64,000 bases of DNA from Streptosporangium nondiastaticum (GTDB lineage: Bacteria; Actinomycetota; Actinomycetes; Streptomycetales; Streptomycetaceae): positions 1 to 64,000 of the forward strand of contig NZ_PXWG01000022.1 in NCBI RefSeq assembly GCF_003011965.1, read 5' to 3'. The position numbers and the translations under genes were made by a program. Each line of letters begins with the position of its first letter. The stretch's first letter is position 1. Shown one piece after another: positions 5,935 to 13,428 of the stretch. Below the pieces are notes generated by a model. That model ran no database searches. It was not told the DNA's origin and saw only the letters and a list, made by a program, of their open reading frames with translations.

Positions 5935-5988
5935 ACCGTGCCGGTTCCTTCCCCGGTGACCGAGGGGGCCGCCGCCGTACGGCTGGGC

Positions 5989-7107
5989 TCAGCTGATGAT
6001 GTTGTCGGGGGTGCCGAGCCAGACGTGCTGGCCCTCGGAGGTGACGGTCATCCCGGCCCGGTCGCGTTCCGGCCGGCCGCGCTCCTCCCAGAGCCGGAAT
6101 GCCGCTTCCACCTCGTCCCACAGGCACCGTGGTCCGTACTGCTCGACGGCGAAGGTGTCGTGTCCGGGAAGGTAGTCCACCGATGCCCATGACTTCTGGT
6201 CGTCAGCGAGGAGCCACAAGGTGGCCTCGCCGCTGCCGTCGTCGGCCTCGACGGTCAGGGGCCTAGCATCGGGAAGGGCAAGGCCAATAGAGAATTTCGC
6301 TTCGTACTCGGCTTCCAGGTCCCTGGGCGAGAGCCTGGTGGTACTGCGGGTGACCTCGTCTCGGTGGTGGAGGAAGTCGCGCAGGTAGCCACGCGGGGGC
6401 CGGTTGGTTCGGGTGCGCATGAAGGCCGGGTAGCCCGTGAACCGGCCTTCGGCGATGCCGTCGCGGGTGTTGAGGACGGCGAACGAGTACGCGTGGTAGC
6501 TCCCGCCCCACGGGGCGACGATACGTCCGGCCGGGGTCTGCTCAACCCATGCGTAGGGGATTTCGGGGACGGTGAAGGTCGCGATCCACCGGTCGTACGG
6601 TGCGCCGTCGGGGTGTCCCTTCTCGGCGTCGCCGCAGATAACCTGTGGGGTGTATCCGGCTGCATGCAGGTTCTTGATCGCCTGTTCCACGATCGCGGCG
6701 TCGATGTCCATGCCGAAGACGTTCTGGGAGCCGAGCCGGTGTGAGAGCCAGGCCAGGTTGTAGCCCGTGCCGGCTCCGGCATCCATGACCCGGTGTCCTT
6801 CATGCACGTCCAGCAGCTGGAGCATCTCCAGCATGAGCGAGGGCATGGAGGACGAGGACGTCGGTAGCCGGTATGCGTCCTCGCCCAGGTCCTGGCCGTC
6901 GTTGAGCCGGGTGACGAGCGGCAGGTCGCCGTAGACCACGGTCAGCCACCGTTCGGGCCGGTCACTGCGCGAGAGTGGCCGGTCGTCGACCTCGATGGTC
7001 TCGGGCACGAACAGCTTGCGATCGACCGAAGCTACGGCGTCCTTCCATTCCGGGAGAACCGCCCCTTTGTTGGTGAGGATCTCCAGGAGCCGTTCCGGTG
7101 AGCTCAT
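5989..7107 (-). CDS. PIMT-like O-methyltransferase with C-terminal extension (aspartimide-forming RiPP type)
   Basis: The 372-residue protein has the layout of protein-L-isoaspartate O-methyltransferase: a serine-rich active-site region T-S-S-S-S-M-P-S (residues 83-90), motif I D-A-G-A-G-T-G-Y-N (109-117), and an acidic strand end G-M-D-I-D (about 132-136). It continues about 150 residues beyond a normal PIMT, as in the methyltransferases of aspartimide-forming RiPP clusters (lanthipeptide, graspetide and imiditide types). Those enzymes methylate a precursor aspartate, and the ester collapses to an aspartimide. The start codon lies 6 bp after the stop of a 37-residue peptide gene, which is the likely substrate. 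No ATP-grasp or lanthionine gene is next to it. The alternative is a general repair-type methyltransferase. Confidence 0.75.
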   Translation of the reverse strand: MSSPERLLEILTNKGAVLPEWKDAVASVDRKLFVPETIEVDDRPLSRSDRPERWLTVVYGDLPLVTRLNDGQDLGEDAYRLPTSSSSMPSLMLEMLQLLDVHEGHRVMDAGAGTGYNLAWLSHRLGSQNVFGMDIDAAIVEQAIKNLHAAGYTPQVICGDAEKGHPDGAPYDRWIATFTVPEIPYAWVEQTPAGRIVAPWGGSYHAYSFAVLNTRDGIAEGRFTGYPAFMRTRTNRPPRGYLRDFLHHRDEVTRSTTRLSPRDLEAEYEAKFSIGLALPDARPLTVEADDGSGEATLWLLADDQKSWASVDYLPGHDTFAVEQYGPRCLWDEVEAAFRLWEERGRPERDRAGMTVTSEGQHVWLGTPDNIIS

Positions 7108-7113
7108 GCCGCC

Positions 7114-7227
7114 TCACTTCTTCTTGGGAGGATCGGTCACCGGTTTGTTCCACTGACCGTCCTTTTCCTTGTTGGACTGGTTCTTGTTGCCTTCCCCGCC
7201 GCCTTTGCCGTCACCATGCGTACCCAT
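7114..7227 (-). CDS. 37-residue Gly/Lys/Asn-rich peptide, candidate aspartimide-RiPP precursor
   Basis: The frame starts at an ATG at 7227 with AAGGGA about 9 bases upstream and ends with a TGA 6 bp before the methyltransferase ATG. It reads M-G-T-H-G-D-G-K, then a Gly/Asn/Lys stretch, then E-K-D-G-Q-W-N-K and ends P-P-K-K-K. It has eight lysines and two Asp-Gly pairs (residues 6-7 and 23-24), the dipeptide most prone to aspartimide formation and the preferred target of PIMT-type chemistry. There is no signal peptide. The tight coupling to a PIMT-like gene makes a precursor role plausible. Chance occurrence is the alternative, although codon use fits the window. Confidence 0.6.
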   Translation of the reverse strand: MGTHGDGKGGGEGNKNQSNKEKDGQWNKPVTDPPKKK

Positions 7228-7882
7228 CGCCGGTGGTCCCTTCTGTCGAGCGGTGCTGTGTGGGCCAGGAAATTACAGAACGAGAGCCGTCAGCGGCGGA
7301 TGGGACCACAGCACGCTTGCGGACATCACCAGCACCACGCCCGCCGACCTGCCCGCCACGGTCCGCACCAGCCCTACTACCGGTCACTCGGCGCCCTCCG
7401 CCACTGAGTGAGCGGCGCGCCTCCGCCGCCCTGCGGGCTCTGGCCCTGCGTTACACTGCCCGGCCCGACGCCGACGCGCTGCGGTTGGCCGCGGCAAAGG
7501 GCCGCGCACCCGGACAGCGAGTCGAGACCCAGCGGGAGTGCGGGAGCTGCGCGAACGCCAGGCGCACATCGCCGAGCGTGCCGCCTACCACCGGGAGCGC
7601 GAGAAGCAGTACCTCGCCATGGCCGCCTAATCCAACGTCCCCGCCGCACACATGCCCCCACCTGGAAGGAGCCCGTGGAGATCTCTGCCAAGGTCCAGCA
7701 TCGGCACAACCACTGCGGCGCCCCGGGCGCGCGCTGGCCGTCGCCTTCAACGCCGACGGCGGCCCGGCGCGCGCGGCGCGCTCACGGGCGTCCAGCCATG
7801 CGACAACCGACCCTTCAGCCGCCGCGGCAAGGCTGGCGGCGAGGACCGGGTCGTCGGCGAAGTGCGGCAGCCGGACGGCGAG
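7228..7882. other. Degraded region with remnants, no intact gene
   Basis: About 650 bp with no gene I can support as intact. A short plus-strand fragment ending at a TAA at 7628-7630 reads R-E-L-R-E-R-Q-A-H-I-A-E-R-A-A-Y-H-R-E, a charged helix typical of a real protein terminus. The preceding frame (7407-7530) changes phase relative to it. It may be the tail of a plasmid- or ICE-type gene, but the family cannot be named. Confidence 0.35.
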
Positions 7883-8320: not shown

Positions 8321-8728
8321 ATGACGATAACGGTCTCGGATGTGATGCCCGCCGCGCGTGACATAGCTGCCAAGCTTGAGGTATCGGTGCGGCGCGTGAT
8401 CGCCTTCAGCGCCTGTAGCGACTTCTCCACGTATGTAGATATCGATGGTGATGGCCTCCACTGGATCGTGGCGGAGCGGGCAGGCCGGGAGGTCAAGCGC
8501 CGCACCACTGACAGCATCGACGAGCTCATGCACTGGCTCGCCGTCGAGGTCACCTTCCAGATGGCTGGGGAGTGGGCGTGGGAGCAGCGGAGCCGCTTCC
8601 CCGAGCGTGAGGTCACCGGCACCGACCGACTGGCCAAGCAGGTCGAACTCCTGCGGCGCCTTGACGGCTCCTGGGCCGTGCAGGCCCAGGCGGAGTACGA
8701 CGACGCATACTCACCCGCGTTCGGCTGA
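8321..8728 (+). CDS. Imm63-like immunity protein
   Basis: The 135-residue acidic protein begins M-T-I-T-V-S-D-V-M-P-A-A-R and contains V-D-I-D-G-D-G-L-H-W-I-V-A-E-R and a region S-I-D-E-L-M-H-W-L-A-V-E-V-T-F. This layout resembles the Imm63 family of immunity proteins that protect against polymorphic toxins. No ribosome binding site is visible before the ATG, so it may be translated from a leaderless transcript. No cognate toxin gene is next to it. As in many actinobacteria it could be an orphan immunity gene protecting against a competitor's toxin. Family assignment is by eye and only moderately secure. Confidence 0.55.
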   Translation: MTITVSDVMPAARDIAAKLEVSVRRVIAFSACSDFSTYVDIDGDGLHWIVAERAGREVKRRTTDSIDELMHWLAVEVTFQMAGEWAWEQRSRFPEREVTGTDRLAKQVELLRRLDGSWAVQAQAEYDDAYSPAFG

Positions 8729-10129: not shown

Positions 10130-10685
10130 ATACGCCGTCCTCAAGCACGGCTGTCCGGTCCCCATATGCAGGCGTGCGCCACAGGGCGTGACCGTCAGCC
10201 GCAACGGCACGGCGAGCGGCCGTTTCGTCCACACCGCCAGCTACATGTGGCTGCGCTCGCACCGCGGCCCCAACGGCAAACCGCCACAATTGGGCGAACC
10301 CCGCTGCTCCGCTTCAACGGCCGCACCCAATCAGGTCCTCGACGACAGCCTGCACGCCACCTTTGCCATCGGCCTGCAGATCCCGGGCCTGACCATGCGG
10401 CGAGCCGGCGCTGGAGATGACCGGCGCATCCTGCTGTGGGATGGTCACGAGTCGTTCGCCTCCGTGTACTGCGAAGGCTGGAATGACCCCGACGCCGTTC
10501 TCCAGCAGGGGCCCCGGTCCCTGTGGTCGGAGATCACCAGCGCCCGCACATGGTGGGAAGAGACGGGAAGGCCCGAACTGACCCGCTTCGGGGTATCCGT
10601 CGACGGTGCGGGACGCCATCATGTCTGGCTCGACTCACCCGACACGGTGGTGAGATCGCCAAACATGGTCCGGTCCCACACGTAA
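10130..10685 (+). pseudogene. C-terminal remnant of a PIMT-like methyltransferase
   Basis: From about 10187 the frame reads V-S-R-N-G-T-A-S-G-R-F, A-S-Y-M-W-L-R-S-H-R, and then I-L-L-W-D-G-H-E-S-F-A-S-V, G-P-R-S-L-W-S-E-I, E-E-T-G-R-P-E and H-H-V-W-L-D-S-P-D. These blocks match, in the same order, the C-terminal half of the methyltransferase at 5989-7107 (N-T-R-D-G-I-A-E-G-R-F, P-R-C-L-W-D-E-V, E-E-R-G-R-P-E and Q-H-V-W-L-G-T-P-D). The SAM-binding N-terminal half is missing, so the product cannot be an active enzyme. It points to a second, now decayed, copy of the RiPP-type locus in opposite orientation. Confidence 0.7.
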
Positions 10686-12863: not shown

Positions 12864-13428
12864 TCAGACGATCTCCCAGTCCAGTTCTCCGTCATCGACG
12901 TTCCGCTCGTAGTAGTGGAGTGCGTTGCCGGTTTCCAGGGTCGAGGCAACCTGGGCGAACAGTTCCGGGAGCGAGGACCACATCGGGTGGGGGTCAAAGC
13001 GGCAGCCGTCCTCATGACAGGCGTCGCCGATCCTGCCGAACTGGTCAATCACCAGGTGGTTGCCGCTTCCATCACTCGCGAAGGGGACCCAACGGCGGTC
13101 CCACCACGGCCCGAACTCCGCAGCAGGGTCATCGTGGACATCGTCCGCATCGCTCCCGGCGATCTTGGTGCGCAGCGCCCAGGTGTCAGCGATCTCCTTG
13201 GCGCTGAGGAGATGCCATCCCGAAGGAAAGAGCGTCCGGAAGTCCGTTCCGTCATGGCGCAGCAGGGACTCGGCCAGCGGTGCGGGCAGCGGCATACCGA
13301 TCACCTTCTCGGTCGCGGTACGTGCTGCCGGGTCGGCAGGGGAAGCCAGGTCGGCGTAGGTGACTGGAGCATGCTGAGCCAGCCACGTCTCTATCCGCGA
13401 CCAAGATTCGGCAAATGGAAGAAGTCAT
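12864..13428 (-). pseudogene. SMI1/KNR4-family immunity-type protein with an N-terminal frameshift
   Basis: The intact part (12864 to about 13410) encodes W-S-R-I-E-T-W-L-A-Q-H-A-P, then G-M-P-L-P-A-P-L-A-E-S-L-L-R-H-D-G, the classical SMI1/KNR4 opening, and later L-P-E-L-F-A-Q-V. No start codon precedes the first block in frame. The ATG at 13428 begins M-T-S-S-I and is one base out of phase; removing one T in the T-run at about 13413 joins it perfectly to the domain. Either the gene is a very recent pseudogene, the run is a sequencing error, or translation starts at a downstream GTG near 13309 and loses the first helices. These proteins often protect against toxins. Confidence 0.65.

What the first reader, a model, noticed from the sequence alone, without database searches (positions are those of the whole stretch)
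5989..7227. Minimal two-gene locus: Asp-Gly-containing 37-residue peptide plus PIMT-like methyltransferase
The sequence shows a 37-codon gene with two Asp-Gly pairs and eight lysines, ending 6 bp before an extended PIMT-like methyltransferase with intact SAM motif. It is known that PIMT homologues in RiPP clusters methylate Asp and form aspartimides, and that a class with only precursor plus methyltransferase (imiditides) exists. I infer that this pair is such a locus. The sequence is not one I recall from the described examples.
Basis: partly seen in the sequence, partly recalled or inferred. Interest (0 to 1): 0.8.

Follow-up and report, generated by a model that had tools for sequence, protein, structure and literature searches.

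The report
Conserved imiditide (type I pamtide) gene pair
A Streptomyces gene pair encodes a short lysine-rich peptide and an enzyme predicted to methylate one of its aspartates and so turn it into an aspartimide; it is a well-supported new example of a recently described natural-product class, not a new class.

Summary
In detail: a 37-codon ORF (7114-7227, -) ends 6 nt before a 372-aa PIMT-like methyltransferase (5989-7107, -). A peptide profile hits 19 of 392 genomes of the genus; all 18 strong hits (own genome included) stand just before a relative of the enzyme, broken in three. Starting from the enzyme, 29 of the 31 closest loci kept carry the peptide or a sister peptide just upstream. 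The peptide is under purifying selection and its type follows the enzyme tree. The enzyme has the PIMT core, extra C-terminal domain, WxxxGxP and a conserved acidic loop; its model resembles TmPIMT over 306 residues. These are sequence hallmarks of imiditides/type I pamtides, already described (PMC10787088, PMC13001092). Asp23 (DGQW) is the likeliest site; chemistry is untested here. New member of a known kind.

Two leads go further: related peptide-enzyme pairs lie in Streptomyces phages, and such loci are strongly enriched beside HTH-DUF5753/DUF6879 genes, though not at the window's own locus.

The parts
7114..7227 (-). 37-codon precursor peptide MGTHGDGKGGGEGNKNQSNKEKDGQWNKPVTDPPKKK; SD-like AAGGGA at 7237-7242, 9 nt before the ATG
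7159..7161 (-). codon of Asp23 (D23-G24-Q25-W26), proposed methylation/aspartimide site
   Evidence: present in all 18 strong profile hits and in sister peptide types; the site is inferred, not shown
7210..7212 (-). codon of Asp6, the alternative site; conserved in family A, its following Gly not always
5989..7107 (-). 372-aa peptide aspartyl O-methyltransferase (PAMT, PIMT homologue); GAGG at 7112-7115 overlaps the peptide stop, suggesting translational coupling
6763..6789 (-). SAM motif I VMDAGAGTG (residues 107-115)
5992..6390 (-). extra C-terminal domain (about residues 240-372), absent from E. coli PIMT, present in TmPIMT and RiPP-associated PIMTs
   Evidence: PMC10787088 and PMC13001092
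6226..6249 (-). acidic loop EADDGSGE (residues 287-294; D290, S292, E294 invariant in 14 clade enzymes), proposed to bind the Lys-rich peptide
   Evidence: analogy with the DEDGD loop of NmaM (PMC13001092)
6070..6090 (-). WxxxGxP motif (WEERGRP, residues 340-346)

Best explanation
The pair is an imiditide / type I pamtide locus. The 37-aa peptide is the substrate and the PIMT-like enzyme is a peptide aspartyl O-methyltransferase (PAMT). Proposed working: the enzyme's acidic C-terminal loop holds the lysine-rich linear peptide; the enzyme methylates Asp23 with SAM; Gly24's amide nitrogen attacks the methyl ester, losing methanol and giving an aspartimide, which slowly opens to isoAsp/Asp. Shown here: both genes, their close coupling, purifying selection on the peptide, co-inheritance of peptide type and enzyme clade, predicted enzyme fold and motifs. 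Inferred from tested relatives: methylation and aspartimide (isoAsp was not directly confirmed for SpaM either). Inferred from conservation: Asp23 as site. What the product does for the cell is unknown for the whole class.
For: Peptide profile: 19 of 392 genus genomes, the 18 strong hits all just before a PAMT relative. Enzyme-first: 29 of 31 loci with >=47% identity have peptide type A or B1 directly upstream. Peptide types follow the tree of 68 PAMTs: 11 label changes against 42.8 in shuffles. Purifying selection. PIMT core and extra C-terminal domain (PF01135, 87 bits; TIGR04188, 313 bits, below its cut-off of 380), WxxxGxP, conserved acidic loop. AlphaFold model pLDDT 93.9; best match TmPIMT 1DL5, Z 26.9 over 306 residues. 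No ATP-grasp peptide maturase (TIGR04187) on the window's contig and no RiPP maturase among 14 window ORFs scanned. Homologous two-gene loci modify linear peptides in E. coli and in vitro (PMC10787088 section 2.5; PMC13001092 section Imiditides).
Against: No biochemical data for this pair. TIGR04188 score is below the family cut-off. Two of 31 close enzymes lack the peptide, and three of 18 peptides sit beside an enzyme that looks broken. The basic C-terminus is not universal (homologues end in ERT, EEQ, VAR). Residue 22 is Lys here and in one close relative but Ser or Gly in the others (2 of 30 against 28 of 30), so the residue before the proposed site is atypical. D6 is as constant as D23 within family A.
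Confidence: 0.83

Rival explanations
1. The enzyme is a protein-repair PIMT (isoAsp to Asp in damaged proteins) and the small ORF is incidental.
For: The catalytic core matches canonical PIMTs.
Against: The peptide is conserved, under purifying selection and tied to the enzyme clade; the enzyme has the RiPP-type C-terminal domain and WxxxGxP; the genome has five further PAMT-like matches, three of them near full length with their own short DG peptides.
Confidence: 0.05
2. A graspetide-type cluster that lost its ATP-grasp enzyme, so that the enzyme's true substrate (a cyclised peptide) is missing.
For: Best NCBIfam match is the ATP-grasp-associated methyltransferase family TIGR04188; three of the 68 PAMTs form their own branch, and in the two scanned the ORF overlapping the PAMT start is an ATP-grasp peptide maturase above cut-off; the third has an ORF of the same size in the same place, not scanned.
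Against: The window enzyme lies in a different, fully supported clade of 18 where 17 of 18 have a type A or B1 peptide; no TIGR04187 match on the window's contig, the one match in the genome (below cut-off) being on contig C111.
Confidence: 0.04
3. The locus is decaying: it lies in a gene-poor island with a truncated second PAMT, and may no longer make a product.
For: GC is 0.63-0.70 over 1-16 kb except the first kb (0.73), against 0.71-0.76 in 16-20 kb, and few genes are called there; a 5'-truncated PAMT remnant lies at about 10191-10682; three of 18 family members elsewhere have enzymes that look broken and S. albireticuli lacks the peptide.
Against: Both ORFs are intact with catalytic motifs, and the comparison with the nearest relative shows pN 0.05 against pS 0.32 in the peptide core.
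Confidence: 0.08

Closest known systems
Imiditides / type I pamtides (SpaA-SpaM of S. sparsogenes; NmaA-NmaM of Nonomuraea maritima)
   Same: Two-gene locus; Gly/Lys/Pro/Asp-rich linear precursor of similar size with a conserved Asp; PAMT with extra C-terminal domain and WxxxGxP; acidic C-terminal loop as in NmaM; found in Streptomyces.
   Different: The precursor family (MGKHGDGKGG..QSPKESDGQWxKP..PPKKK) could not be compared with SpaA/NmaA because their letters are not in the text I saw. Chemistry not shown for this pair. Proposed site is D-G, whereas NmaA has D-H.
Graspimiditides (graspetide group 13, e.g. SsfA-SsfB-SsfM)
   Same: Homologous methyltransferase (TIGR04188) and predicted reaction.
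   Different: No ATP-grasp ligase here; SsfM needs the cyclised peptide (PMC10787088 section 2.1); separate branch in the tree.
Cysimiditides / type II pamtides
   Same: Precursor plus PAMT only.
   Different: No CxxCxGxG zinc motif; the window peptide has no Cys at all.
Thermotoga maritima PIMT (1DL5)
   Same: Best fold match over both domains.
   Different: Annotated as an isoaspartate methyltransferase and not known to me to have a partner peptide (recalled); rmsd 7.3 over 306 residues suggests a different domain orientation.

Membership tests
Imiditide / type I pamtide | Two-gene locus: short precursor directly beside a PAMT, no other primary RiPP enzyme | tested here: met
   6-nt gap; no RiPP maturase among 14 window ORFs scanned with Pfam (4, 10; about 43 ORFs were called in the window); no TIGR04187 match on the contig. 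Other RiPP enzyme classes were not searched across the whole window.
Imiditide / type I pamtide | Precursor of about 45 aa rich in Gly, Pro, Asp (and Lys) with a conserved Asp near conserved Gly/Pro | tested here: met
   37 aa: Gly 8, Lys 8, Asp 3, Pro 3; D23-G24 present in all 18 strong profile hits. Pro at 8% is below the class mean of 16.8% given in PMC10787088.
[quoted passage not shown]
   Pfam PCMT match ends at residue 211 of 372; model shows E253-257, H261-266 and H268-277, E281-287, E295-301, E307-312, E319-324, H329-342; 1DL5 aligned over residues 3-366.
Imiditide / type I pamtide | WxxxGxP motif in the C-terminal domain | tested here: met
   WEERGRP; 64 of 68 homologues have the motif.
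Imiditide / type I pamtide | Charge-based recognition: basic precursor end, acidic C-terminal loop of the enzyme | tested here: inconclusive
   PPKKK end and EADDGSGE loop present, three loop residues invariant in 14 enzymes; not universal at the peptide end; function untested.
Imiditide / type I pamtide | PAMT converts Asp of the unmodified linear peptide to aspartimide/isoAsp | not testable with these tools
   Needs co-expression and mass spectrometry.
Graspetide group 13 | ATP-grasp ligase beside the PAMT | tested here: not met
   No TIGR04187 match on contig C144; the only match in the genome, below cut-off, is on C111.
Type II pamtide / cysimiditide | Two CxxCxGxG motifs in the precursor | tested here: not met
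   No Cys in the peptide.

The most novel reading that the evidence does not exclude
Imiditide pairs are small mobile cassettes that serve plasmids, phages and their hosts in conflict or signalling, and the HTH-DUF5753/DUF397/DUF6879 genes that flank many of them are part of the system. On this reading the window pair is one such cassette (its DNA similarity to the nearest relatives covers only the pair), and the imiditide-type pair in phages such as Ididsumtinwong and PapayaSalad would be a lysogenic-conversion or superinfection factor, which would give this function-less class its first testable biological role.
Probability: 0.25. Interest if true: 0.8.

Novelty: new member of a known kind. 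Interest (0 to 1): 0.42.

Why it matters
It adds a well-conserved precursor family to a class whose chemistry is known but whose biology is not: the 2026 review (PMC13001092, Conclusion read) calls linking aspartimidylated RiPPs to biological function the bigger challenge. The family gives a ready natural mutant series around the Asp-Gly site (S, G or K before it; Q, R or K between Gly and Trp), natural pairs in which one gene is broken or missing, and, in related pairs, phage-borne copies and a strong link to HTH-DUF5753/DUF6879 genes, which are handles for finding the function.

Tried and rejected
Chance short ORF: rejected (1 of 439 control genes against 50 of 67 PAMT genes; purifying selection). 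Repair PIMT with an incidental ORF: rejected by co-inheritance. Graspetide: no ATP-grasp peptide maturase on the contig. Defence gene: the PADLOC match to mad2 (1e-14) covers only residues 94-173, the generic SAM fold, and was not pursued. Phage origin of the window peptide itself: no match in the phage collection at E up to 10. A regulator module at the window locus: none of the genome's 25 DUF5753 matches and none of its 5 DUF6879 matches lies on the window's contig C144; the enrichment is a property of the wider family. S. albireticuli and S. lichenis: no further copy of the peptide found (150 of 167 and 150 of 166 candidates scored). A viral contig locus (L212) has a PAMT relative without a DG peptide found upstream, and L223 has an ATP-grasp-like reading frame upstream, by eye only.

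Limits of the counts. In one search at most 19 candidates a genome were scored, so 19 of 392 is a lower bound. The invariance of H4-G5-D6 and D23-G24-W26 is partly by construction (sequences were picked by patterns for those letters, and only 30 of 31 with the standard spacing entered); the profile hits were not picked so. The labels were assigned by patterns on the peptides; 7 of 68 rows stayed 'other'. In one search matches under 250 query residues, with stops, or under 300 aa, and identical proteins, were dropped; one of the 68 was dropped for too little upstream sequence. The near/far neighbour counts use 63 loci: nine of 76 had no called PAMT gene and dropped out, and four duplicates were removed by hand. 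Some loci are syntenic neighbours in related species, so counts are not all independent. My gene calls are from a simple codon-bias caller, not a standard annotation.

Literature limits. The imiditide discovery paper (10.1021/jacs.3c02991, recalled) is not held; SpaA and NmaA letters are in figures not held, so whether family A is among the 1414 catalogued type I pamtides is unknown.

Full report
Observation. On the minus strand of the window a 37-codon ORF (7114-7227) is followed after 6 nt by a 372-codon ORF (5989-7107). The peptide has two Asp-Gly pairs, eight lysines and eight glycines. GAGG at 7112-7115, overlapping the peptide's stop, can serve as ribosome-binding site of the second gene, as expected for translational coupling.

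The enzyme. It matches PF01135 (87 bits, residues 84-211) and TIGR04188, the ATP-grasp peptide maturase methyltransferase family, at 313 bits against a cut-off of 380. Its last 160 residues lie outside the PIMT match. An AlphaFold model from 35 sequences has mean pLDDT 93.9. Its best structural match is the two-domain T. maritima PIMT 1DL5 (Foldseek 9e-21; VIA-align Z 26.9 over 306 residues, rmsd 7.3); the shorter PIMTs in the list match mostly residues 1 to about 240. The SAM motif, the WxxxGxP motif (64 of 68 homologues) and an acidic loop EADDGSGE with three residues invariant in 14 enzymes are present. The review PMC13001092 (sections Imiditides and RiPP-Modifying PIMT Homologues read) describes the same extra domain and motif, and a DEDGD loop whose replacement in NmaM greatly lowers modification.

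The peptide is a real gene. A 7-sequence profile was run over 392 genomes of the genus: 19 match at E<=0.01, 18 of them at E<=1.9e-13, own genome included; not all candidates per genome were scored. All 18 strong hits stand just before a PAMT relative, from a 4-nt overlap to an 18-nt gap (counted from the alignment starts and). In three the enzyme looks broken: frameshift in the G158 chromosomal copy, only residues 1-153 aligned in G089, two overlapping pieces in G354. The one weak hit (E 0.003) has none. Going the other way, a scan of named species genomes with the enzyme alignment gave 79 loci, the best of 335 relatives. Of the 31 with at least 47% identity, 29 have the peptide (21, type A) or a sister peptide (8, type B1, such as MGKKGGDHSGRPDTSDSDGHRDKPPGPTKPYEPPKK) ending -4 to +33 nt from the enzyme. 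The exceptions are S. albireticuli, whose enzyme also has an in-frame stop near its end, and S. lichenis; no copy of the peptide was found elsewhere in these two genomes. The two surveys overlap in species. Over a 23-codon core of 30 distinct sequences mean pN is 0.134 and pS 0.479, with pN<pS in 432 of 435 pairs. As a control, an SD-preceded short ORF with DG, Gly+Pro of at least 25% and a basic end precedes 1 of 439 other genes in the fetched loci and 50 of 67 PAMT genes.

Peptide and enzyme evolve together. I built a tree of 68 distinct PAMTs and labelled each by the short peptide upstream (types A, B1, B2, C, D, E, F, other). The labels need 11 changes on the tree, against 42.8 on average when shuffled and a minimum of 7. 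Types A and B1 form one fully supported clade of 18; its only member without such a peptide is a plasmid copy (L003; G158 C2, 296,355 bases, the same size and place as plasmid NZ_CP119146.1) whose peptide is cut down to its last codons, while the chromosomal copy in the same strain keeps the peptide but has a frameshifted enzyme. Types A, B1, B2 and F share an Asp-Gly, mostly preceded by Ser, Gly or Asp, with prolines following, which points to Asp23 as the site; the first Asp-Gly of the window peptide is not kept in B1 and is D-D in one A homologue.

What it is. These are the features of imiditides, also called type I pamtides: a precursor and a PAMT, nothing else. PMC10787088 (sections 2.1-2.3, part of 2.4, and 2.5 read) reports over 1500 pamtide clusters and shows for SpaA/SpaM +14 and -18 Da species on a linear peptide, though isoAsp was not directly confirmed there. 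PMC13001092 gives 1414 type I members, most often in Streptomyces and Actinomadura. By the sequence tests available the window pair belongs there; the reaction itself rests on these relatives. I could not check whether this precursor family is in their list. Homologues of the enzyme, ordinary PIMTs included, are in 193 of 199 genomes at E<=0.001, and the window's own genome has six matches, three further ones near full length with their own short DG peptides.

Cassette behaviour. With the nearest relative, Streptomyces sp. UNOC14_S4 (83% protein identity), DNA similarity to the first 20 kb of the window runs only from 5995 to 7284, and with S. albireticuli only from 5982 to 7109; no flank match was found at E<=1e-8 in about 3 kb on each side. 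So the pair moves or is kept as a unit. Relatives occur on 67 plasmid records, best identity 58%. The window's 1-16 kb is lower in GC and gene-poor and carries a truncated second PAMT.

Lead 1, phages. The enzyme search in 50,697 phage records hits 8 records of 5 phages of S. venezuelae, all at 42-43% identity over 98% of the enzyme. I read 4 of the 5 (PapayaSalad, Alderaan, Ididsumtinwong, Austintatious): all have nearly the same short ORF, MSGKHGGGSGSGSGGSQQDDSSSGRQHGGGGSETSGGNSSDGSGP plus a short end (three letters differ in Alderaan), stopping 8 nt before the PAMT, between the endolysin side and the regulator side. It resembles bacterial peptide type C. The phage enzyme is 76% identical to one on a 37.8-kb contig that is itself 90% identical to Alderaan over about 7 kb, and 65-66% to the nearest others. 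In Ididsumtinwong the nearby regulator, two small genes away, is HTH-DUF5753 with a DUF397 gene, and Austintatious has a near-identical regulator by eye; PapayaSalad and Alderaan have other HTH regulators. PapayaSalad and Ididsumtinwong carry an annotated integrase; Alderaan seems to have lost it (PMC7650747, passages). The words phage, virus and prophage do not occur in the main text of the two pamtide/imiditide papers, and 'methyltransferase' does not occur in the main text of two Alderaan papers (PMC7650747, PMC10117723). The window peptide itself has no phage match.

Lead 2, regulators. Within 3.5 kb of the PAMT, 20 of 63 distinct loci have a DUF5753 gene (23 genes in 417 kb), 11 have DUF6879 (12 genes) and 11 have DUF397 (19 genes); beyond 3.5 kb there are 1, 0 and 1 genes in 340 kb (one example of each family, and a second for DUF5753, confirmed with Pfam). 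Twenty whole genomes hold 585 DUF5753 and 98 DUF6879 matches in about 169 Mb, so the excess is about 16-fold and 50-fold. None of the three loci on the graspetide branch is among the 23 with such a gene. For graspetide groups 11 and 13 the DUF397/DUF5753 link is in print (PMC13097080, passage read; DUF5753 also in PMC8939145, passages). I found no 'XRE', 'DUF' or 'regulator' in the main text of the two pamtide papers, and 'DUF6879' occurs in no held paper. At the window locus there is none: no DUF5753 or DUF6879 match lies on its contig.

Verdict. The finding is real and rightly read. It is a new member of a known kind, well supported at sequence level, with the chemistry still to be shown. 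The leads on phages and regulators are the more surprising part, but they concern the wider family and are only partly followed up.

Noticed in passing
L213 3825-5164, L214 3762-5164, L215 3828-5164, L216 2259-3664 (phage records NC_047793, MT711975, NC_047792, NC_048153): Streptomyces venezuelae phages of genus Austintatiousvirus encode a short Gly/Ser-rich Asp-Gly peptide 8 nt before a PAMT, between the endolysin and regulator sides: an imiditide-type pair in phages.
   Followed up: partly
20 of 63 PAMT loci, e.g. L033 2612-5765, L040 9191-11906, L046 10530-11917: DUF5753, DUF397 and DUF6879 genes are strongly enriched within 3.5 kb of pamtide-type PAMTs (about 16-fold for DUF5753 and 50-fold for DUF6879 over genome density).
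   Followed up: partly
window 10191-10682 (+): A 5'-truncated PAMT remnant: only the C-terminal domain, 37-39% identical to that of the window enzyme, no methyltransferase core found.
   Followed up: yes
L032 9205-12533 and L042 7057-10384 (one genome, G158): Two 99.6% identical copies over 3.3 kb: the chromosomal one keeps the peptide but has a frameshifted enzyme, the one on the 296-kb plasmid has an intact enzyme but only the last codons of the peptide.
   Followed up: partly
L107, L108, L109 (own genome, contigs C221, C23, C111): Three further PAMT genes of the window's genome with other short peptides upstream (types E, B2 and F), so the strain may make several imiditide-type peptides.
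   Followed up: partly
L158 1544-1651 and 2901-2996 (Streptomyces chumphonensis): A type B1 peptide and a type A peptide-PAMT pair lie about 1.3 kb apart in the same locus, suggesting tandem imiditide pairs.
   Followed up: no
L211 3817-5110 (IMG/VR contig of 40,565 bases): A viral contig with a type E-like peptide 50 nt before a PAMT; its edge, about 3.6 kb away, has a 180-bp match to a small gene beside the phage PAMT.
   Followed up: no
window 8387-8728 (+) and 12864-13295 (-): Immunity-protein-like genes (Imm63, SMI1/KNR4) near the pair in the gene-poor island; no toxin partner was looked for.
   Followed up: no
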